Source: a virus. From it: 45,720 nt of DNA. This document shows, one piece after another, positions 5,982-45,720 of this stretch. The notes beneath the pieces are model-generated. The model had not been told where the DNA came from, made no database searches, and saw only the letters and a program-made list of their open reading frames with translations. The translations under genes and the position numbers were made by a program. The first letter of the stretch is position 1. Each line of letters opens with the position of its first letter. Where the stretch lies: positions 1-45,720 of IMG/VR virus record IMGVR_UViG_3300037321_000056. One strand, 5' to 3'.

Positions 5982-6797
5982 GTGATAAATACAGCGATAA
6001 ATACTTTGACTTTTCTTAAATCCGCAATACCGTATATGGGTAACAAATATTCAATACTAGATCAGTTGGTATGGCGAATACCAACTGATATTAGTACATT
6101 TAGAGAAATATTCTGTGGTTCTGGTGTGGTTAGTTTAAATGTATCCGCTAAAAACTATGTACTAACTGATATAAATCCACAATTGATAGAGTTGCACAAT
6201 TGCTTAATGAATATAGAATTTTGCAAGAATGCCTTAGACCTTTCCAATACGTATTTATCCGATATTGATGATTACCTTAGACTCAGAAAAGATTACAATG
6301 AAAACCCTACCCCAGATAAATTCCTATTGTTAATATACAGGTCATTTTCTAACCAAATTAGATTTAACTCTAGTGGTGAATTTAATATGCCGTATGGGGC
6401 TAGGAACACATTTAATTGGGCTAAGATTGTAAAACATTTTTCGGTTGTAATGAATGAAAGTGTTGAAATATATCTTTCCGATTTCAGGGATGCACTATCA
6501 TCTATATCTGATGATGATTTTGTATTTATAGATCCGCCGTATTACAATTCAGTAGCCACATATAACGATGGATGGTCAGCCCAAGATGAAATAGACTTAT
6601 ACGAATTAATTGGGCAGTTAAAATGCCGTTGGATGCTAACCAACACATTAGAAAATCGTGGGGTTGAAAATAAATATTTGACTGACTTTGTTAAAGGGTA
6701 TAATGTAACTCCTATAAATTCGTCATTTAACTATGATAAGTTTAGAAAGACTGATCATAAAAAGAAAGAAATTATTGTAACTAATTATAAGGTTTAA
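5982..6797 (+). CDS. dam: Dam-like N6-adenine DNA methyltransferase
   Basis: Methylates adenine in DNA using S-adenosylmethionine; the T4 homologue recognises GATC. Class alpha Dam layout: I-P-Y-M-G-N-K near residues 16-22, motif I F-R-E-I-F-C-G-S-G-V-V-S-L-N-V, motif D-I-N-P-Q-L-I, an R-x-N-x-x-G-E-F-N-x-P-Y-G segment, and the catalytic DPPY in V-F-I-D-P-P-Y. The start is uncertain: GTG at 5982 has no good ribosome site and TTG at 6006 is an alternative. It may protect phage DNA from host restriction or mark it for its own use. Confidence 0.88.
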   Translation: MINTAINTLTFLKSAIPYMGNKYSILDQLVWRIPTDISTFREIFCGSGVVSLNVSAKNYVLTDINPQLIELHNCLMNIEFCKNALDLSNTYLSDIDDYLRLRKDYNENPTPDKFLLLIYRSFSNQIRFNSSGEFNMPYGARNTFNWAKIVKHFSVVMNESVEIYLSDFRDALSSISDDDFVFIDPPYYNSVATYNDGWSAQDEIDLYELIGQLKCRWMLTNTLENRGVENKYLTDFVKGYNVTPINSSFNYDKFRKTDHKKKEIIVTNYKV

Positions 6798-6798
6798 C

Positions 6799-8289
6799 AT
6801 GACAGAAACATTTTTAAATACAGTTGTTCGAGGTGACAATATCCTAGAACGATACTTAGATGGTAATAATGAGGAACAGGTACGAAAAGTTCCGTATAAG
6901 CCGTCATTATTCTTTAATAGTAAGGATGAAACTAACTATAAAGATATTTATGGCAATTATGTAATGCGAAAGAAATATGATTCATTAGTTGATGCCAGAG
7001 AAGCCAGAAAGAGTTATGACGGCGTTCATGGTGCATCTGTATTAGGTATGGATAACTTTGGCTATGCGTATATGTCAGACACATATAATGATATGAAACC
7101 GGATATGAAAAATGTTCGAATAGCTATAGTCGATATTGAGGTCACAGCCCCATGTTTCCCTTCGCCAATAGTAGCTATCTGGGAAATAGATGCGATAACT
7201 CACTATGATTATCTTGAAGACCAATTCTATACTTGGGGTTGTGGTGAGTGGTGTCGAGAGAAATCGGTTCTACCAGAAGAAATATTAAACAAGTTAACAT
7301 ATTTTCGCTGTACATCCGAAAAGGATATGCTGATTAAGTATTTACAATTTTGGGCAGAAAATCCACCTGTTATTATTAGTGGCTGGAATTCTAAGTTTTT
7401 CGATACTCCATATATTTACCAAAGAATTTTAAAGGTGTTGGGTGAAACCAATGTAAGAAGATTGTCACCGTGGAAGATTGTTCGATGTGTTGAAGGTGCG
7501 GATGCTTATCATAATGATACTATTAGTATTGATATCCTTGGTGTTTGTGAGTTAGATTATATTAAACTGTATAGAAAATTCGTATTAGAGCCTAGAGTAA
7601 GTTATAAATTAGACAGCATTGGTGAGATTGAAGTTGGTCAAAAGAAAATTGATTTTTCGGAATATAAAAACTTAGCAGATCTGAAAGCTCGTAATCATCA
7701 ATTGTATATAGATTATAATATCGGTGATGTTGATTTGGTATTTAGAATTGACGGCGCTAGAAATTTGTTTAACTTGGCAATCAATATAGCATACTATGCA
7801 AAGATTAATTTTGATGATGTATTTTCTCCAATACGAACGTGGGATGCAATATTGTTTAACTCATTGCGTCAGCAAAATATAGTTATTCCTGAAAAAGTAC
7901 AGCACCCAAAAGAAAGATTTATGGGTGCTTGGGTTAAAGAACCTAACGGCGGCGCGGGTGGACTATTTGAGTCTATCCTAAGTGTGGATTTAGAATCACT
8001 GTATCCATGTGTTATAATGCAATGGAATATTAGCCCAGAAACCATAGTAGAAGAATTTCATCCACAGCCGATACAAAAATGGGTTGATGGGACGGCTAAA
8101 TTTGATACCAATGATTTATCGTGTAACCCAAATGGTGTTAGGTATTCAAAAACTAAACGAGGTGTTATACCTATAGAAATTGAAAAGGTATTTAAACAGC
8201 GTAAGCATCATAAAAAATTAAATCAACAATACGCACAAGAATTATTGTTAATTGATAAAGAGATTGAACGAAGAGGGTTAAAGGTATGA
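6799..8289 (+). CDS. 43A: DNA polymerase, N-terminal piece (gp43A): exonuclease domain and first half of polymerase domain
   Basis: Family B replicative polymerase of the T4/RB69 type. The 3'-5' exonuclease motifs are present: V-D-I-E-V, G-W-N-S-K-F-F-D and Y-N-x-x-D-x-x-L-V. Palm motif A follows as S-V-D-L-E-S-L-Y-P. The chain ends in the fingers after Q-R-K-H-H-K-K-L, 496 residues into a protein that would be about 860-900. Motif B and motif C are in the separate genes at 9782 and 10819. A split in the fingers is known in some T4-like Aeromonas phages (gp43A/gp43B), so this is probably a functional two-chain arrangement. The stop overlaps the next ATG. Confidence 0.93.
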   Translation: MTETFLNTVVRGDNILERYLDGNNEEQVRKVPYKPSLFFNSKDETNYKDIYGNYVMRKKYDSLVDAREARKSYDGVHGASVLGMDNFGYAYMSDTYNDMKPDMKNVRIAIVDIEVTAPCFPSPIVAIWEIDAITHYDYLEDQFYTWGCGEWCREKSVLPEEILNKLTYFRCTSEKDMLIKYLQFWAENPPVIISGWNSKFFDTPYIYQRILKVLGETNVRRLSPWKIVRCVEGADAYHNDTISIDILGVCELDYIKLYRKFVLEPRVSYKLDSIGEIEVGQKKIDFSEYKNLADLKARNHQLYIDYNIGDVDLVFRIDGARNLFNLAINIAYYAKINFDDVFSPIRTWDAILFNSLRQQNIVIPEKVQHPKERFMGAWVKEPNGGAGGLFESILSVDLESLYPCVIMQWNISPETIVEEFHPQPIQKWVDGTAKFDTNDLSCNPNGVRYSKTKRGVIPIEIEKVFKQRKHHKKLNQQYAQELLLIDKEIERRGLKV

Positions 8290-8624
8290 GTAGGTCATTT
8301 GAAGAATTATGTAACATGAAGGCTGGTGAATTTTATTGGGAAAATACACAGCAAGGTAGTATACTGTTCATGGTGGAATCACTCCCAGAGATAATAACCA
8401 CTTCTACTAGACAGGTTGTTTGGTATGGGGTGTGTGTAGACCCACTATTTAGAAATGTCTGGATGGGTCGATTTTTAGCAACCGAAAAATACATGCATTA
8501 TGCTCCCAGAATTAGTAATAATGCAGAGTATATTAATGTTAGTAAACTTGAAAAGTACGAAACCGAACCACTTAAAAAACTTATAATGGAGAACCAAGAT
8601 GTCGAATACACCAGCAAATACTAG
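8286..8624 (+). CDS. Hypothetical protein in the gp43A-gp43B insert (112 aa)
   Basis: Soluble, Trp/Tyr-rich 112-residue protein, unrecognised. Its ATG overlaps the gp43A stop (ATGA), and its end overlaps the next gene by 26 bases, so it is translated as part of the polymerase operon. First of five genes that separate the two polymerase halves. Confidence 0.7.
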   Translation: MSRSFEELCNMKAGEFYWENTQQGSILFMVESLPEIITTSTRQVVWYGVCVDPLFRNVWMGRFLATEKYMHYAPRISNNAEYINVSKLEKYETEPLKKLIMENQDVEYTSKY

Positions 8625-8814
8625 AACCTTATCACCCTCAGAAGCACTTTTTGGATTTTGTGGATGGTTAACTACCAGAGATAAAATTACCCGAATGGGG
8701 TTAGTTTGTGAATGTTCAGAAATACCAGATCTAATAGTGGAATTCTGTGAATTTAATAATCTACCAATGCCCGAACACGATTGGCATAAAAATTTAAATC
8801 ATCCAAAAGAGTAA
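8599..8814 (+). CDS. Small conserved phage protein with GFCGWLTTR motif (71 aa)
   Basis: The core L-S-P-S-E-A-L-F-G-F-C-G-W-L-T-T-R and C-terminal L-P-x-P-x-x-D-W-H-K-N-L-x-H-P resemble a small uncharacterised protein family that I recall from many unrelated phages. No known function. It overlaps the preceding gene; an AAGATG context precedes the ATG. It is directly upstream of the holin-like gene. Confidence 0.75.
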   Translation: MSNTPANTRTLSPSEALFGFCGWLTTRDKITRMGLVCECSEIPDLIVEFCEFNNLPMPEHDWHKNLNHPKE

Positions 8815-8818
8815 AATG

Positions 8819-8826
8819 TCTAAATA
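8819..8826 (+). promoter_or_regulatory. Near-consensus late promoter (TCTAAATA)
   Basis: Differs from the T4 late promoter TATAAATA at one position and lies 27 bases before the holin-like gene. It would allow the lysis-like genes to be expressed late although they sit inside the early polymerase locus. Single-mismatch matches are common in AT-rich DNA, so this is tentative. Confidence 0.35.
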
Positions 8827-8852
8827 GTAATCAACCCAATAGAGGAATTACT

Positions 8853-9113
8853 ATGTTTGTAGAACATTTTCGAAAAGATGATAATGATAAAAATAAGATT
8901 AGCCGAAACGTATTTTTCACATCATCATTAATTTATATAACGATGTTGACGGCTTTTATAGTCGGCTGGTTTATGAATTTGGATACTAGGGATCTGAGTG
9001 CAGTTCTAATAAGTATTACAACTTCATACGTTACAATCGCATCGTGGTATGTAAAATCTACCAAAGATAAAGAAATAGAAGAAATAAGGACAAAATCAAA
9101 TGCTAAATTTTAA
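8853..9113 (+). CDS. Holin-like small membrane protein (86 aa)
   Basis: Two predicted membrane helices (about residues 20-42 and 47-66), a charged N-terminus and a basic, Lys-rich C-terminal tail: the layout of a class II holin. It has a GAGG ribosome site and overlaps the inner-spanin gene by 14 bases. The gene order with the spanin pair is the main argument for a lysis role. No endolysin is seen in the window, so it could instead be an unrelated membrane protein. Confidence 0.6.
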   Translation: MFVEHFRKDDNDKNKISRNVFFTSSLIYITMLTAFIVGWFMNLDTRDLSAVLISITTSYVTIASWYVKSTKDKEIEEIRTKSNAKF

Positions 9114-9528
9114 TCCATTAACTAAAGTTACAGGGTTTTTCAGTGCTAAGGTATTATTGGTTATAGCTGTTTGTGGTTTTACTGCATCTTCAGCTATAAT
9201 ATATTACCAGAAGGTACAAAAAGCTGGTCTTAGGCAAGATATTATAGAACTTAATAATCAAATTGTTGCCAGTAAAGCATCATATGTGATGTGTTTAGGT
9301 CAAATTGATATTATCTCAAAAGACCACAATGATCAGTTGCTAAAACAAGTTGAACAGAGTAAACTTAATAATCAGAAGTTGAAAAACGAGATTAATGCAC
9401 TAATCAATGACACATTACTTGAATCTAATAAGAAACTGAATAAAGTTAAAGGCGTTGTTGAAAAATACGATTGGAGTAAAGAATCTCCACCGGAAGAAAT
9501 ACTAGGGATGATTAATGAAAAATCTTAG
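9100..9528 (+). CDS. Rz-like inner-membrane spanin
   Basis: One N-terminal membrane helix (about residues 16-36), then an extended, Asn/Lys/Gln-rich, coiled-coil periplasmic region, the typical i-spanin form. It overlaps the lipoprotein gene at 9515 by 14 bases in a different frame, the classical Rz/Rz1 relationship. With its partner it would fuse inner and outer membranes in the last step of lysis of a Gram-negative cell. Spanins have little sequence conservation, so the call rests on architecture. Confidence 0.75.
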   Translation: MLNFNPLTKVTGFFSAKVLLVIAVCGFTASSAIIYYQKVQKAGLRQDIIELNNQIVASKASYVMCLGQIDIISKDHNDQLLKQVEQSKLNNQKLKNEINALINDTLLESNKKLNKVKGVVEKYDWSKESPPEEILGMINEKS

Positions 9529-9772
9529 TGTAATATTATTAACTCTATTTATTACCGCATGTAGTAGTACACCATCTGTAATAACTGAAACTAAAATTAA
9601 ATACGTTGATCGTATTGTATTAGAAGAAAAAACGATTTGCTGTAATTGTACTCCGATTCCACTATGTGAATATGAATCAGCAATTACAACAAATGGTGAA
9701 CTAGCATCAACTTACGTTTGCTTGTTAGAACAAAAAAAGCTTGAAAATCGATTAAAATTACAATGTAAATAG
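9515..9772 (+). CDS. Rz1-like outer-membrane spanin lipoprotein
   Basis: A signal peptide ends in the lipobox I-T-A-C with the lipidated Cys at residue 16, followed by S-S-T-P, which suits outer-membrane sorting. The mature part is about 70 residues and has several more cysteines (C-C-N-C and later ones), possibly disulphide-linked. The start lies inside the i-spanin gene, with ribosome site AGGG. This pair points to a Gram-negative host. Confidence 0.78.
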   Translation: MKNLSVILLTLFITACSSTPSVITETKIKYVDRIVLEEKTICCNCTPIPLCEYESAITTNGELASTYVCLLEQKKLENRLKLQCK

Positions 9773-9781
9773 AGGTATATT

Positions 9782-10414
9782 TTGAATTATACAGACTTAT
9801 CGGACGCTGATTTATTAGCCTTGAGAGCAAAGACTAAGCAAGATGTTTCAATTGAACATATCAATCAACACGCCAGAAAGATTTTAATCAATGCACTTTA
9901 TGGGTCAGTTGGGAATAGATTTTTTAGATATTACAGCTTAGATAATGCAAAAGCCGTTACGATGGGCGGTCAGTTAGCCACACGATGGGCGCAGAGGGAA
10001 CTTAATAGTTATCTTAATAGGTTGTTCAAGACCGATACGGATTATGTCATATACGGCGATACGGATAGTGTAATTGGGTCTACGATAATAAAAGTAAATG
10101 GTGAAAATACTAGCATTGAAAATTACTACAATGATCTACCAGAAAATTTTATTAAAAATGATGTAATTGGTCATGATTACGTAAAATATGGTGAGGGTGA
10201 ATCTTTATCGGTAAATCAATCCTTAGATGTTGAAAGTAAACCTATAAAATATTGCATGAAACATAAAGTTAAAAAACGTATGTTTAAAATAATTTGTGAT
10301 GGTGATGCTGTAACTGTAACAGAAGACCATTCTGTGATGGTGCTTAGATGTGGAAAATTAATAGATTGTAAGCCTACAGAAATTAAAAAAACTGATAAAA
10401 TTTTGAAATTGTAG
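9782..10414 (+). CDS. 43B: DNA polymerase middle piece (gp43B) fused to an N-terminal split intein
   Basis: Residues 1-95 continue the polymerase with motif B, K-I-L-I-N-A-L-Y-G, and the first part of motif C, Y-G-D-T-D. Residue 96 (Ser, codon 10067-10069) begins a 115-residue N-intein that has a block-B V-T-V-T-E-D-H. The chain then stops. The TTG start at 9782 has AGAGG just upstream. After trans-splicing with the product at 10819, the joined sequence would read YGDTD-SLYLSLKEL, matching the YGDTDS of RB69 gp43. The first intein residue is Ser instead of the more common Cys. Confidence 0.92.
   Translation: MNYTDLSDADLLALRAKTKQDVSIEHINQHARKILINALYGSVGNRFFRYYSLDNAKAVTMGGQLATRWAQRELNSYLNRLFKTDTDYVIYGDTDSVIGSTIIKVNGENTSIENYYNDLPENFIKNDVIGHDYVKYGEGESLSVNQSLDVESKPIKYCMKHKVKKRMFKIICDGDAVTVTEDHSVMVLRCGKLIDCKPTEIKKTDKILKL
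10067..10411 (+). mobile_element. Split intein, N-terminal half (115 aa)
   Basis: Starts at Ser after Y-G-D-T-D and runs to the stop codon. It contains an early N-G-E segment and the T-E-D-H motif that assists N-S acyl shift. Length is typical for the N-half of a split intein. It interrupts the most conserved motif of the polymerase, a common intein target in family B polymerases. Confidence 0.88.
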
Positions 10415-10440
10415 ATACTGACATAGGCGAGGAATAATAT

Positions 10441-10815
10441 ATGAAATATGAACAGCAATTTTTTAGATTTTGTGAAAGTAAAAGTAACTTAGTCGATTTG
10501 GACACATTAAATGAAATAAAGCCAAAAATCATTCAAGTGTTTAAATATTTGGATGATTGTAATTCAGTTTTAAAAAAGCAAAATACTTATAAATTAATGT
10601 ATCAAATGTTAAATTCTGGTGTTAATACGCTGATTCTCAGAAGACTTATAAAGTTAAAGCGATATGGATATGCTCAGACTAAAATAAAAACAGTTATAAA
10701 GTATGGAAAGATAATGGGTATTGAGAAGTGGAATTCTTATTTAGACCGCCAAGCGTATACGAATAGTTTAGATTATTACAAAGGTAAAGGATTCACTATA
10801 TGGAGGACTATGTAA
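10441..10815 (+). CDS. Endonuclease-like ORF between split intein halves, probably truncated (124 aa)
   Basis: Basic protein with its own AGGA ribosome site, lying between the two intein halves. The C-terminal half has R-R-L-x-K-L-K-R-Y-G-Y followed by K-Y-G-K-I-M-G and R-Q-A-Y-T-N-S-L-D-Y-Y. I recall this pattern from free-standing homing endonucleases found between split-intein gene halves ("fractured genes"). It ends just after this region, so a nuclease domain may be missing and the gene may be degenerate. Function is inferred mostly from position. Confidence 0.6.
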   Translation: MKYEQQFFRFCESKSNLVDLDTLNEIKPKIIQVFKYLDDCNSVLKKQNTYKLMYQMLNSGVNTLILRRLIKLKRYGYAQTKIKTVIKYGKIMGIEKWNSYLDRQAYTNSLDYYKGKGFTIWRTM

Positions 10816-10818
10816 CCT

Positions 10819-10935
10819 ATGAAAATTTATAGTGATTTTGAAATTGTAGATTTGGGTATTCAAGAAGTTGAAGTTTATGATATAGAAGTTGAAGATAATC
10901 ATAATTTTTTTGCTAATGATATACTTGTACACAAT
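10819..10935 (+). mobile_element. Split intein, C-terminal half (39 aa)
   Basis: Ends in His-Asn followed by Ser (TCG at 10936-10938), which supplies the nucleophile for the second splicing step. Length matches usual C-halves of 35-40 residues. All residues needed for splicing appear present, so I infer an active trans-splicing intein. Confidence 0.88.
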
Positions 10936-11736
10936 TCGTTATATCTATCATTAAAGGAATTAACTGATAGGTTTCCCAATAAGACTGAAGACGAAATGGT
11001 TGATGTCTTGGATAAGTTTTATGAAACTAAACTTAAACCTGTAATCGACAACGGTTATGTTGATTTATCTAATTATGTAAATGCCTTTGATAATAAGATG
11101 AAAATGGATCGTGAGGTTATTGCTACGCGCGGTTTATGGACTGACAAAATGAAACGATATGCTCTATGGGTAAAGGATAACGAAGGATTGAGAAAGGACA
11201 AGCTCAAAATTTTGGGATTGGAAACTCAAAGTTCAACTACGCCGCGCGCCGTTGTATCTGCATTAACTCATTGCATAAAACTTATACTGACTAAAACCGA
11301 ATCGGATTTGCAAGATTATGTTGAACAATTCAGCAAAGAGTTTAGGAATATTAGTTATCTAAAAATGGCTAAAGTTTCAACGGTTAATAATATTGCAAAA
11401 TATTCAGACTCTGAAGGTAATGCTATAAAAGGTACGCTTGGGCAAATTAAGCCGGTGTTAATTTATAATAAATTAGCGGTAATTCATGGTTTTGATAAAA
11501 TACAGGAGGGTGAGAAAGTTGCAATAATTCCTTTAATTAAGCCTAATAAATATCAAGTTGAAACTATGGGGTATCCCAGTGGTTCAGAGTTGCCGATAGA
11601 AATCCGTGAATATTGTATTAGTAAAATGGACTATAACTTATTATGGGATAAAATGTTTATTAAGCCATTAATGAATATATGCAATGCGATAAAATTCAAC
11701 CCAGAGAAAACTTTCTCTATTGATGATTTTATGTAA
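10819..11736 (+). CDS. 43C: C-terminal split intein fused to DNA polymerase C-terminal piece (gp43C)
   Basis: Residues 1-39 are a C-intein with V-Y-D-I-E-V, N-H-N-F-F-A-N-D and terminal V-H-N; residue 40 is the +1 Ser. Residues 40-305 are the rest of the palm and thumb: S-L-Y-L-S-L, then D-R-E-V-I-A-T-R-G-L-W, K-R-Y-A-L, L-K-I-L-G-L-E-T-Q-S-S-T-P, N-N-I-A-K-Y and W-P/Y-P-S-G-S-E. The C-terminal F-S-I-D-D-F-M resembles the clamp-binding tail of gp43. Total polymerase from the three genes after splicing is about 857 residues, a normal T4-type size. Confidence 0.93.
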   Translation: MKIYSDFEIVDLGIQEVEVYDIEVEDNHNFFANDILVHNSLYLSLKELTDRFPNKTEDEMVDVLDKFYETKLKPVIDNGYVDLSNYVNAFDNKMKMDREVIATRGLWTDKMKRYALWVKDNEGLRKDKLKILGLETQSSTTPRAVVSALTHCIKLILTKTESDLQDYVEQFSKEFRNISYLKMAKVSTVNNIAKYSDSEGNAIKGTLGQIKPVLIYNKLAVIHGFDKIQEGEKVAIIPLIKPNKYQVETMGYPSGSELPIEIREYCISKMDYNLLWDKMFIKPLMNICNAIKFNPEKTFSIDDFM

Positions 11737-41033: not shown

Positions 41034-41234
41034 ATGATAGAAATTAACGGAAAGGAAATAGAAAGGGGTTATATAGAAGATCCTATCGTGCGTGATTATT
41101 TAGAACAAATTACATTTATTGATATGAAAATTAAAGAGATTAAAATGGAACAATCCAGACTAGACGTAGCTAGGATTGTCTATTCAAACTCTTTAATTAA
41201 ATATATCGAAAGTCACCCATTGGATGGTCAGTAA
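41034..41234 (+). CDS. Small helical protein (66 aa)
   Basis: Has one of the strongest ribosome sites of the window (AGGAGG). Amphipathic helix in its second half, possibly coiled coil. It is the last plus-strand gene; its end overlaps the end of the convergent fibre gene by 7 bases. Confidence 0.65.
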   Translation: MIEINGKEIERGYIEDPIVRDYLEQITFIDMKIKEIKMEQSRLDVARIVYSNSLIKYIESHPLDGQ

Positions 41235-42865
41235 GTGTACCAACCACCTTTTGACTTAATGTAGATGAATTTGTAAGTTTCACCGTGAGATAATGTAAAC
41301 TCTTCAACCTTTACAAATTCATCATAATCATAATCTTCAACTAGTTCCCAAGTTTCATCATCATATGATTTATATATACCGTCAGGTTCATCACGGAATA
41401 TTGGAATATTTCCATATTCGACATTATTAAATGTCAATCCAGACCCTTTAAGTGTAACAGTTCCTTGATATTCGCACAATATAACCGACACACTAAATCT
41501 AAAATTATCTTTTGGTTCAGCGGGTAAATGTACATTAATATCCTGTTCTGGGAAAATAACTTCACTTTCACCATCAGCTACCCACACATCGGTCACTGTT
41601 AATATTTTTTCAACATCCGGTAATAATTCACATGTTTCGTTAACAACTACATAACAAGCATAATCCAATGACTTAACTATATGAATAGTGGATTTAGGTT
41701 TCATTGTAAACCCATTCAATTTGGTATTCGAGTTATTCGCATCAAATTTTGATATCCACACACTACCAGATCCAACCGCCAGTAATGATTCGCCGTCATT
41801 TGTTAATGAAAGATTTTCTGCTACCATATCAGTTTTATAATCATTCCAAAATCCTAGCTTAGATGATACGGATAAACTACCTCTGGTTAACAATGCAAGC
41901 TTTGTTAAATCGTAATTTGCGTCAAATGATTGAAAGTAGCCAGTGTATTCTTTTACTAAGGACATTCCATTTTGATTAAGTAAATATATAGAACCCTTTG
42001 TTTGTTCGTCAGATATGAATATAACACCCCTTGAGGTTGCCACAGGACATTTTACAGTACCTTTAACGGTTACTACCTTACCACCGTATTGAATTTGCTT
42101 ACCAACGTATATACATGGTTCTAGGTGCGTTGCTATGAGTTTTGTTGCTGGTATCAGTTTATTCATCTTTTTAAATGAATCACCGGAATTATTAGAATAG
42201 TGAATTTCGCGTTGATTATTTAATGTTGCAATTGAATTACCAATGATATCGACCAATGAGCAATCATCCAATAAAATACAATCAGTCTGATCACATTGTA
42301 TATCGGTCTTATATAATTTATTATTTTGAACATATACCAGTGTATTGCCAGATGAATTAACGGCAAAATCCTGAATACTTTCTTTTAAAATTGGGTTTAA
42401 TGAAGATGCGCCCAGACCATATAATACTTGATCCTGTCTGCTATATAGTAAATGCCCTTGTGCGCTATTAACCGTATATGCATGATTAGGTATATCCAAC
42501 TTATCCCAATTCTTTCCAACTATTTCACTATTATCCAAAAATGGATTAATAATGCCTAATCTGGATGTTAGGCTAACGTCCGATTTTGCAAGCGTATTGG
42601 TAATAACAAATTCATCACCCTCAACTAAACTATGCGTAGCTGATTCAGTATTAGTACATAATACAATTCCAGCTACCAAAGTTGAACTTGATTTAACCGC
42701 CGTATTTTCTTTAGGTTTATCTACATTTGAAAATTTATTGTTGACATATTCTTTCATTTGTGAAAGAACAACTGCATCCGAATCTTCTTTTGCGTTTCCT
42801 ACATTTTGAATTCGTTCATTATTTGAATCGAATCCCTTTCTACCTTTAAACGGTTTTGCTGTCAT
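41228..42865 (-). CDS. Fibre/appendage protein with beta-propeller-like body (545 aa)
   Basis: N-terminus K-P-F-K-G-R-K-G-F-D-S-N-N-E-R-I-x-N-V-G-N-A with D-A-V at about 30 is the usual virion-attachment motif of phage fibre proteins. The middle consists of repeated short beta-segments with S-N-N-S-G-D-S-F (Asp-box-like), suggesting a propeller. The C-terminus, ending H-G-E-T-Y-K-F-I-Y-I-K-S-K-G-G-W-Y-T-Y, resembles a beta-sandwich end domain. A late promoter lies upstream on the minus strand. Which tail structure it belongs to is not clear. Confidence 0.75.
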   Translation of the reverse strand: MTAKPFKGRKGFDSNNERIQNVGNAKEDSDAVVLSQMKEYVNNKFSNVDKPKENTAVKSSSTLVAGIVLCTNTESATHSLVEGDEFVITNTLAKSDVSLTSRLGIINPFLDNSEIVGKNWDKLDIPNHAYTVNSAQGHLLYSRQDQVLYGLGASSLNPILKESIQDFAVNSSGNTLVYVQNNKLYKTDIQCDQTDCILLDDCSLVDIIGNSIATLNNQREIHYSNNSGDSFKKMNKLIPATKLIATHLEPCIYVGKQIQYGGKVVTVKGTVKCPVATSRGVIFISDEQTKGSIYLLNQNGMSLVKEYTGYFQSFDANYDLTKLALLTRGSLSVSSKLGFWNDYKTDMVAENLSLTNDGESLLAVGSGSVWISKFDANNSNTKLNGFTMKPKSTIHIVKSLDYACYVVVNETCELLPDVEKILTVTDVWVADGESEVIFPEQDINVHLPAEPKDNFRFSVSVILCEYQGTVTLKGSGLTFNNVEYGNIPIFRDEPDGIYKSYDDETWELVEDYDYDEFVKVEEFTLSHGETYKFIYIKSKGGWYTY

Positions 42866-42906: not shown

Positions 42907-42914
42907 TATTTATA
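42907..42914 (-). promoter_or_regulatory. T4-type late promoter TATAAATA (minus strand)
   Basis: Reads TATAAATA on the minus strand, 42 bases before the ATG of the 545-residue gene, and overlaps the stop of the upstream fibre gene. A short GGTGG/CCACC hairpin (42884-42901) and an AGAGGG ribosome site follow. Confidence 0.75.
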
Positions 42915-45720
42915 TTCTTGAATCGTTAACTTTTGGAATTATCAACCAGTTGGCTGTTATTGCCTTACCTACATCAGCCGAATTAAAAGATAACTCACCA
43001 GTACCGCGACATACGTATACACTTCCAGCCGTTGGTAAACTTACACCATCGGCTGGTAATATATCAGCCTTTACACCATCGAGAAATATTTCACCATTAC
43101 CAGAACCCGCAAAGTATTCATATGATAACTTTGCAAAATTTGGGTCAAATGCCCCAGTGGTACTACCATCCCCAACTTTAACCACATGCCTAATATCATC
43201 AAATGTCACCGTTGCATCCCAAATATTTAAACTGAAATAATCGCTTTTGCTAGTCATAGTACCCTTTAAGACACCAGAAATATTAGTCCCATACTCAATT
43301 ACCAGATCGCCATTTCTCTTTAATTCTAATGTACTACCAACTCTAACAAACTCATATTCATCGTTAATTGGGTCAAAATCGGTAATGTCGTAAGTCGTTT
43401 CCGTACTTAATGTTATCATTCTTAACTTAGCCAAATCTGGATTGTCATTATTATATTGAATAAACACACCAAAATCTGGCACATTAGCCGATAATGGGTC
43501 TATTGAAGATTTAGTACTAAGTCCAAAGAACGCATGATAAGCCGATGCTAAATTAGTTGGCATATTATAAGCGTAATAATTACAACTCATACCGAATTTA
43601 ATTGAAAAGTCTCCATCTAGATCCGCACCTATAATTAATCCATCTGGTGAGCCAGTTTTAGGTGTATTGTAAGGTGAAAACTGTCCGATATAATCAATTT
43701 CCATTGTAAATTTACAGTTAGATATAGTGTCTTCTTGTAAATGAGATTCAAACGCAAATGGCATTGTAGTTACACCAATTGGATTAGGTACACTTGATGG
43801 GAATGTACCAGTTCCTTTAGCGCCAGGTCCATACATAGATGTAAATTCAGTAGTAAATTCAGTAGTATCATCTTTAACAATACCATCAAAAACATATGTA
43901 TCGTATACATCATCAGCTACAAAATTTGTTGCGCTACCCTCACTACCCGCTAATTCCTCAAATTGTATAGACAATCCACTTACCGTTAAATCATTAGTTG
44001 TATGGGTGGGTTTAGTACCATTGAAATCCTTTACCCAATTTGTACCATTCCAACCATAATATTCCCATGCACCTTCACCACCGCTGATATATCCGTCATT
44101 ATTACCTAGACCGGTTGGATCACCAACACTATGGTCCACAATATATATCCCATCCACATAACTACTTTCAGCATAGTATGAAGGTGAACCTCCATAAAAA
44201 GCCTTATCTGATCTAATCATGGTCAAGCCGGCGCCTAGATGTATGAAATTACAACTAACATTTAGGTTTGATGAACCGTTGTTTTCACCGGCGCTAAATA
44301 TTTTCACGTTCATTGGTTGACCATCTAAATAACCTTCGATGTTATTTAACGTTAGTCCATTCCGATACGATTCAAACAAATTTGAAGAATAAGAATATTG
44401 TGATCTTACGTAGTATAGATATTGCCCTAAATCATCATCGTATTTCATACACGCTGGATTAGAACCAGACACCATTGACCTCACTGCTACCGATGAACTT
44501 CGAAATTCACACAGAGTATTTACCACTACCCATTGGTCTGTTCCAAGTATCGTATGGACGCAATTATTTCCATGCAATGGATACATGAAATATTGTCCGG
44601 CACTTACATTAGCATTAGTTAGTAATTGATCTGAGGTTGTAGTTGAACCACCTACCGACCACCAATAACAACTAGCATATCTAGTGGATGTTCCCGCCGA
44701 GTTAAATGTACCATCATCATCGAATGGTATATTAGACGACAAAAAGCACATGCGTTCGTCAACGTGAACAGCATCAACATGCATTCCAATTAGCCTATTG
44801 TATGCATCGGCATCGGCTAAATCAGTTAATATAAACTGGGGTGATGTTCCCGCATTTAATACTGTCCAAGTTGCACCTTGATCCTCTGAATACGCTAATT
44901 CGGTACTGAATAGCGCCCACCATTTAGTACCATGCAATCCAGTATGGCTAGGTGAGTTAGTACAAAATGCTTGACATTTTGTGTTATCTACTAATCCAGT
45001 TGGTGTAATATGGGTAATTGTAGCCAAGTTAGCGGCTTCACCAATAGTTCGCTCTATTTTCCATAATCCAGTATTTGCACATGCAACAACAATAGTACCA
45101 TCTAAAAATCCTTCAACGGTTTTAATTTCTGTAACTGGTAATGATGGTGTAGTTCCCGCACTCCATTCAAAATAATCATTTTGGTCTATAGCATGAATAC
45201 TTCTAACAAACACAGCATTTCTACCAGATGGTTTACTATTTACTGATATAAATTCTGGGAAAGAGTACTGACCAATATACCAGCCAATACTAGCAATATC
45301 ACATTCATCAGCCCATAGTCCAGTATCTTTGGGTGTAGACCCATCAGATAATCTAGTATATATTTTATCTTCAGCAAATGCCGATATATGTGGTAGTCTC
45401 GAACTAACTCTACTAAACCACGAATTTTGACTAGCAAATCCAACTATCAATTTTTTAGATATTTTATACGTGCTATCGCCTATAGCCCCAGAATCTATTA
45501 TATGGGTTCTATATAATTCAGCAAATCCATTTTTAGATTCATAACTTGTATCACCACTTGAAAGATTGTCAGATAAAGCGGCACTACCTAATCCATTTCC
45601 AATAAAGTCTGTATCTAGGAACGGTTTAGGTACTTTGGCAAATTCGGCATCACCTAAAGATTTATGGAATGTACTGTTTATAGCCGTATCTGTAGGTCTT
45701 CGCATCTTAGTATTAAATAG
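42910..45720 (-). CDS. Large fibre/appendage protein with Asp-box and LamG-like regions, 5' partial (at least 936 aa)
   Basis: The frame is open to the window end: L-F-N-T-K precedes M-R-R-P at 45705, which has no clear ribosome site, so the real start is probably outside. Near residues 265-275 is S-E-D-Q-G-A-T-W, an Asp-box (sialidase-type propeller). The C-terminal third (about 630-850) has F-T-M-E-I-D-Y, G-L-I-I-G-A-D and F-V-R-V-G-S-T-L-E-L-K-R-N-G-D spacing typical of LamG/concanavalin-like lectin domains. Likely a receptor- or glycan-binding tail fibre or whisker component. Confidence 0.72.
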   Translation of the reverse strand, partial: LFNTKMRRPTDTAINSTFHKSLGDAEFAKVPKPFLDTDFIGNGLGSAALSDNLSSGDTSYESKNGFAELYRTHIIDSGAIGDSTYKISKKLIVGFASQNSWFSRVSSRLPHISAFAEDKIYTRLSDGSTPKDTGLWADECDIASIGWYIGQYSFPEFISVNSKPSGRNAVFVRSIHAIDQNDYFEWSAGTTPSLPVTEIKTVEGFLDGTIVVACANTGLWKIERTIGEAANLATITHITPTGLVDNTKCQAFCTNSPSHTGLHGTKWWALFSTELAYSEDQGATWTVLNAGTSPQFILTDLADADAYNRLIGMHVDAVHVDERMCFLSSNIPFDDDGTFNSAGTSTRYASCYWWSVGGSTTTSDQLLTNANVSAGQYFMYPLHGNNCVHTILGTDQWVVVNTLCEFRSSSVAVRSMVSGSNPACMKYDDDLGQYLYYVRSQYSYSSNLFESYRNGLTLNNIEGYLDGQPMNVKIFSAGENNGSSNLNVSCNFIHLGAGLTMIRSDKAFYGGSPSYYAESSYVDGIYIVDHSVGDPTGLGNNDGYISGGEGAWEYYGWNGTNWVKDFNGTKPTHTTNDLTVSGLSIQFEELAGSEGSATNFVADDVYDTYVFDGIVKDDTTEFTTEFTSMYGPGAKGTGTFPSSVPNPIGVTTMPFAFESHLQEDTISNCKFTMEIDYIGQFSPYNTPKTGSPDGLIIGADLDGDFSIKFGMSCNYYAYNMPTNLASAYHAFFGLSTKSSIDPLSANVPDFGVFIQYNNDNPDLAKLRMITLSTETTYDITDFDPINDEYEFVRVGSTLELKRNGDLVIEYGTNISGVLKGTMTSKSDYFSLNIWDATVTFDDIRHVVKVGDGSTTGAFDPNFAKLSYEYFAGSGNGEIFLDGVKADILPADGVSLPTAGSVYVCRGTGELSFNSADVGKAITANWLIIPKVNDSRI

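What the first reader, a model, noticed from the sequence alone, without database searches (positions are those of the whole stretch)
6799..11736. DNA polymerase encoded in three pieces: a fingers split plus a split intein cut exactly at catalytic motif C
gp43A stops in the fingers. gp43B ends YGDTD followed by an N-intein, and the third gene starts with a C-intein ending HN|S and continues SLYLSL. The active replicative polymerase therefore needs both non-covalent assembly of A with B and protein trans-splicing of B with C. The intein sits between the catalytic Asp pair and the next Ser, so no active polymerase can exist before splicing. Either split type is known separately in phages; the combination in one gene is, as far as I know, unusual.
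Basis: partly seen in the sequence, partly recalled or inferred. Interest (0 to 1): 0.92.

Follow-up and report, generated by a model that had tools for sequence, protein, structure and literature searches.

The report
Phage DNA polymerase in three pieces
A T4-type phage encodes its replication DNA polymerase as three separate proteins, two of which are predicted to be stitched together by a split intein at the catalytic centre; the anatomy is real, but the same three-gene arrangement has been annotated in other phages for years, so this is a new member, with some new details, of a known kind.

Summary
Gene 43 of this T4-type phage is split into A (6799-8289), B (9782-10414) and C (10819-11736). 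B ends YGDTD plus a 115-aa N-intein; C starts with a 39-aa C-intein ending HN|S. The joined 857-residue chain aligns with T4 gp43 (42% identity), and every catalytic residue checked is present. The break between A and B is at the fingers tip; the intein sits between T4 D620 and S621.
The claim that the combination is unusual is only partly right. Aeromonas phages Aes508, Aes509 and AS-gz and Tenacibaculum phage PTm1 carry the same order, already annotated as split and intein-containing, and eleven more environmental contigs show it besides a close sister contig. The homologous Aes123 PolB1 intein is known to trans-splice.
New here: five small genes (weakly spanin- and holin-like) lie between A and B. 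The endonuclease between B and C lost its nuclease domain through a deletion of about 697 bp; the sister keeps it whole. Synonymous divergence drops from 1.2 to 0.015 at the intein junction, a sign of recent homing or exchange. The window's fingers break does not group with the Aeromonas break (AU p=0.007).
Splicing and assembly were not tested here.

The parts
6799..8289 (+). gene 43A: N-terminal domain, complete 3'-5' exonuclease site, palm motif A and the first fingers helix of a T4-type PolB; stops at the fingers tip (T4 residue about 513)
8286..8624 (+). 112-aa ORF in the 43A-43B gap, function unknown; conserved in sister contig L004 (91%)
8599..8814 (+). 71-aa ORF in the gap, function unknown; 76% in sister
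8853..9113 (+). 86-aa membrane protein in the gap, weakly holin-like (PHROG 1350, E 0.03)
9100..9528 (+). 142-aa protein in the gap with an N-terminal membrane segment; inner-membrane spanin-like by anatomy only
   Evidence: sequence inspection
9515..9772 (+). 85-aa lipoprotein-like protein (lipobox LFITAC) in the gap, weak Rz-like spanin match (E 0.003)
9782..10066 (+). 43B extein: second fingers helix, motif B and palm up to motif C YGDTD; TTG start, also TTG in the sister
10067..10411 (+). N-intein, 115 aa: Ser1, NX-motif Lys-His, N3 TEDH
10400..10416 (+). 17-bp direct repeat, copy 1 (ATTTTGAAATTGTAGAT)
10441..10815 (+). 124-aa remnant of the VSR-type endonuclease (PHROG 22677, residues 29-116 of 353); nuclease domain deleted
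10797..10798 (.). junction of the deletion of about 697 bp relative to sister contig L004
10819..10935 (+). C-intein, 39 aa, ending His-Asn before Ser+1
10835..10851 (+). 17-bp direct repeat, copy 2
10936..11736 (+). 43C extein: rest of the palm and the thumb (T4 S621 to C-terminus)
10046..10371 (.). 326-base stretch identical to sister L004, starting 21 bases before the intein; presumed homing/exchange tract

Best explanation
The replicative PolB (gp43) of a T4-type phage is made as three polypeptides. B and C meet through the two halves of a Ser1/Ser+1 class-1 split intein, which forms one intein domain, cuts itself out and joins YGDTD to SLYLSL, completing palm motif C and the thumb (inferred; homologous intein shown to do this). 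The joined B-C chain then docks on A along the natural break at the fingers tip to give a two-subunit polymerase like that of Aeromonas phages 44RR and 25 (inferred; homologous assembly reported). The intein reached this site as a 'fractured gene' element in which a VSR-type homing endonuclease gene lies between the intein halves. The element moved by homing recently (supported by the near-identical intein amid diverged flanks). In this phage the endonuclease was later truncated by a deletion, leaving the split intein as a fixed passenger that must splice (deletion shown by comparison with the sister; later course inferred).
For: Three pieces covering gp43 with only the fingers tip missing, all checked catalytic residues conserved. 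Splicing residues conserved across eight loci: Ser1, Lys-His of the NX motif, TxxH of N3, terminal His-Asn and Ser+1 (NX motif in PMC10189870). The solved structure 9hth of the homologous Aes123 PolB1 intein matches both halves; that intein trans-splices (PMC11923092). Same order annotated in Aes508/Aes509/AS-gz and PTm1. A sister contig has the same order with an intact 344-aa endonuclease where the window has 124 aa. dS 1.20 in the B extein, 0.015 in the N-intein, 0.28-0.41 in C extein and A; 326 identical bases starting 21 bases before the intein. No second gene 43 in the record.
Against: No splicing, assembly or activity was measured for these proteins. The window intein is only 53% (N half) and 67% (C half) identical to the tested Aes-type intein (Aes509 copy), and even that one splices at only about 30% efficiency in its natural split (PMC11923092). 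The record is a 45.7-kb fragment, so an intact gene 43 elsewhere in the genome is not excluded. B relies on a TTG start. Low divergence in the intein could partly be local selection or gene conversion rather than homing.
Confidence: 0.88

Rival explanations
1. Decayed or displaced polymerase: the three pieces are relics and replication uses another polymerase (an intact gene 43 outside the fragment, or the host's).
For: The record is only a fragment; the gene is heavily broken and one neighbour (the endonuclease) is clearly decayed.
Against: All checked catalytic and splicing residues are intact. Against the sister, A and the C extein show strong purifying selection (dN 0.024 vs dS 0.41; dN 0.020 vs dS 0.28). 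The clamp, clamp loader, regA, uvsX and helicase genes sit around it in T4 order.
Confidence: 0.06
2. The pieces assemble entirely non-covalently (intein halves included) into an active enzyme without needing the splice.
For: Fingers-split gp43A/B assemble without a covalent link (PMC2988022); split intein halves associate tightly.
Against: The intein interrupts motif C directly after the second catalytic Asp; the splice residues are all conserved, which would not be needed for mere association.
Confidence: 0.04
3. Assembly artefact: separate genes or alleles were joined wrongly in the metagenome.
For: Single metagenomic record; the deletion junction is seen in one record only.
Against: An independent contig repeats the whole order A-five ORFs-B-endonuclease-C at 92-96% identity for the polymerase pieces; cultured phages show the same arrangement.
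Confidence: 0.02

Closest known systems
Aeromonas Tulanevirus-type phages Aes508, AS-gz, Aes509, Aes123 (GenBank JN377894, MF479730, JN377902, JN377899): gp43A / gp43B1 with N-intein / VSR endonuclease / gp43B2 with C-intein
   Same: Same three polymerase pieces, same fingers break, same intein insertion point, same endonuclease family; N-intein 53% and C-intein 67% identical (Aes509).
   Different: In Aes508 and AS-gz 43B also carries a group I intron, and in Aes508 a Seg GIY-YIG gene fills the A-B gap; the window has no intron, five other small ORFs in the gap, and a truncated endonuclease. Piece A does not form a clade with theirs.
Tenacibaculum phage PTm1 split PolB
   Same: A / N-intein B / VSR endonuclease / C order, annotated as intein-containing split polymerase.
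   Different: Very distant (A about 25% identical over the matched part); two other genes, about 280 and 351 aa, in the A-B gap.
Fractured genes with split inteins (Dassa et al. 2009, NAR 37:2560; cited in PMC6892783, text itself not held)
   Same: Replication enzyme gene broken in two by a split intein with an endonuclease gene between the halves.
   Different: Here the host gene has a second, non-intein break, and the endonuclease is truncated.
Split gp43A/gp43B of phages 44RR and 25 (Petrov et al. 2010, described in PMC2988022)
   Same: Break at the fingers tip giving two non-covalent subunits.
   Different: No intein; gap is untranslated sequence (44RR) or an endonuclease gene (25).
Nanoarchaeum equitans PolB split intein (recalled; noted in PMC10189870 as the first naturally split cysteine-less intein)
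   Same: Family B polymerase completed by a Ser-type split intein; same motif C site as recalled, not checked here.
   Different: Archaeal, two pieces only.

Membership tests
T4-type family B DNA polymerase (gp43) | 3'-5' exonuclease, palm motifs A and C, motif B and thumb in collinear order | tested here: met
   Joined chain aligns with T4 gp43 at 42% over 845 positions, all listed residues conserved; PHROG 262 and RB69 matches
Class 1 Ser1/Ser+1 split intein (Aes123 PolB1 type) | Ser1, NX-motif Arg/Lys-His, N3 TxxH, terminal His-Asn, Ser+1 | tested here: met
   Invariant or conserved in alignments A1 and A2; definition from PMC10189870. Four cysteines are present in the N half, none at a splice position
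Class 1 Ser1/Ser+1 split intein (Aes123 PolB1 type) | Trans-splicing activity | not testable with these tools
   Shown only for the homologue (PMC11923092)
Fractured gene (split intein with endonuclease gene between the halves) | Conserved enzyme gene broken at a conserved motif by a split intein | tested here: met
   Break at motif C, T4 D620|S621
Fractured gene (split intein with endonuclease gene between the halves) | Endonuclease-family gene located between the intein halves | tested here: met
   PHROG 22677 / VSR-family ORF at 10441-10815, but truncated to 124 aa; intact (344 aa) in sister L004
Active homing element | Complete nuclease domain encoded at the locus | tested here: not met
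   Nuclease region (L004 endonuclease residues about 269-328) absent from the window
Split gp43A/gp43B polymerase of Aeromonas phages | Break at the fingers tip with separate A and B products | tested here: met
   A ends at T4 513, B starts at about 514 with its own N-terminus
Split gp43A/gp43B polymerase of Aeromonas phages | Common descent of the split A piece | tested here: not met
   One clade of window/sister and Aeromonas A pieces rejected, AU p=0.007; two independent breaks, or one break and a re-fusion

The most novel reading that the evidence does not exclude
Three-part polymerases built from a fingers break plus a motif-C split intein arose several times independently in T4-superfamily phages, and fragmentation is maintained because it regulates when polymerase becomes active, here coupled to genes (some lysis-like) translated from within the polymerase operon.
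Probability: 0.12. Interest if true: 0.65.

Novelty: new member of a known kind. Interest (0 to 1): 0.42.

Why it matters
It shows an essential enzyme tolerating two different kinds of break at once. The close pair of phages (one with the endonuclease intact, one with it deleted, the same intein within diverged flanks) is a clean natural snapshot of homing followed by loss of the homing enzyme while the intein stays because it must splice. The intein itself is a further Ser-type split intein that could be tried as a protein-ligation tool. The arrangement as such is not new.

Tried and rejected
Second gene 43 in the record: none, but the record is a fragment. Group I intron between A and B as in Aes508 or phage 25: none in the window at Rfam gathering thresholds, while found in L001, L089, L099, L024, L033 and L148. 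Short B starts in several census loci turned out to be intron cases, so only loci with their own B N-terminus were counted. Sliding clamp as the gap gene of PTm1, L005, L175 and L228: suspected by eye, not confirmed by Pfam or PHROGs, so left as unassigned. Common origin of the window and Aeromonas fingers breaks: rejected as a clade, though break plus re-fusion cannot be told from two breaks. Enrichment of fingers breaks among split-intein loci: not claimed, as the loci were fetched with split queries and no unbiased baseline was made. Literature search for a paper that describes the three-part combination found none in the held library; the Dassa 2009 text is not held. No structure was predicted, because the spliced chain is not letter for letter in the DNA.

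Full report
Observation. Piece A (6799-8289) matches RB69 gp43 residues 2-487. Piece B (9782-10414) matches gp43 up to motif C and then the solved PolB intein 9hth. Piece C (10819-11736) begins with the C-intein and continues as gp43 to its C-terminus. Joined in silico at YGDTD|SLYLSL the chain has 857 residues and is 42% identical to T4 gp43 over 845 aligned positions. The exonuclease acidic residues and motif A lie in A, motif B and the two motif C aspartates in B, and the residue after them and the thumb in C. The breaks fall at T4 513/514 and 620/621.

Surroundings. Upstream lie genes 46, 45, 44, 62 and regA in T4 order and a Dam-type methylase; downstream lie uvsX and the gene 41 helicase. 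Between A and B are five small ORFs (8286-9772). The last three are membrane or lipoprotein-like with weak holin and spanin matches. Between B and C is a 124-aa ORF that matches the first third of PHROG 22677, the family of the VSR-type endonucleases that sit at the same place in Aeromonas phages.

Relatives. A contig from another record (IMGVR_UViG_3300037320_000108; L004, L011) carries the same order at 92-96% protein identity for the polymerase pieces, so the order is not an assembly accident. It has a complete 344-aa endonuclease; the window lacks about 697 bp of it, with the junction at 10797/10798. Synonymous divergence between the two is 0.41 in A, 1.20 in the B extein, 0.015 in the N-intein, 0.06 in the endonuclease remnant, 0.11 in the C-intein and 0.28 in the C extein. 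A run of 326 identical bases starts 21 bases before the intein. This is what recent homing or exchange of the intein cassette would leave; the divergent B extein suggests conversion tracts of different length from different donors (inference).

How common. Cultured phages with the same arrangement are already annotated: Aes508, Aes509, AS-gz and Tenacibaculum PTm1. Vibrio VPALA and Pseudomonas MIJ3 have the split intein without the fingers break. In a profile census of fetched IMG/VR loci, eleven contigs besides the sister (L005, L029, L037, L110, L118, L123, L124, L138, L175, L185, L228) have a real fingers break with its own B N-terminus plus a split intein. Many more (48 of 115 counted cases, phage records included) have the split intein with A and B fused. 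A tree of piece A puts the window and its sister beside the Straboviridae; holding the window and the Aeromonas split pieces in one clade is rejected (AU p=0.007), and three changes between split and fused are needed on the careful tree. Gain and re-fusion cannot be separated by this.

Mechanism. Splicing: the residues needed by Ser1/Ser+1 inteins are all present, and the Aes123 homologue trans-splices, at about 30% in its natural form. Assembly: split 43A/43B of phage 25 co-purify and are active. So the likely enzyme is A plus spliced B-C. For this phage both steps are inference. DNA synthesis before splicing is unlikely because the intein separates the second catalytic Asp from the rest of the palm and thumb; exonuclease activity of A alone is possible.

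Verdict. A sound observation and a mostly sound reading, but of a known kind. What is new is the particular phage, the five-gene insert at the fingers break, and the paired alleles with intact and deleted endonuclease.

Noticed in passing
window 10400-10416 and 10835-10851: 17-bp exact direct repeat ATTTTGAAATTGTAGAT at the end of the N-intein ORF (it holds the TAG stop) and at the start of the C-intein, flanking the endonuclease remnant; shared with the sister, not seen in other split-intein loci. Possibly a trace of how the endonuclease entered.
   Followed up: partly
window 9782-10045: B extein is only 77% identical to the sister (dS 1.2), much less than genes on either side: a local replacement tract.
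   Followed up: partly
window 8853-9772: Membrane and lipoprotein-like genes resembling holin and spanins between two polymerase fragments; matches are weak and function is untested.
   Followed up: partly
window 5982-6797: DNA adenine methylase-type gene (PHROG 56) inserted between the regA region and 43A, not there in T4.
   Followed up: no
L024, L033, L148: Group I introns inside PolB genes that also carry the motif-C split intein, giving polymerase genes with both an RNA-level and a protein-level insertion.
   Followed up: partly
L005, L175, L228 and PTm1 (L093): A gene of about 270 aa with no Pfam or PHROG assignment lies between 43A and 43B; in L005, L175 and L228 the intein halves have no endonuclease gene between them.
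   Followed up: partly
window 41228-42865 and 42910-45705, minus strand: Two large ORFs (545 and 931 aa) on the opposite strand without any PHROG match at E 0.001.
   Followed up: no
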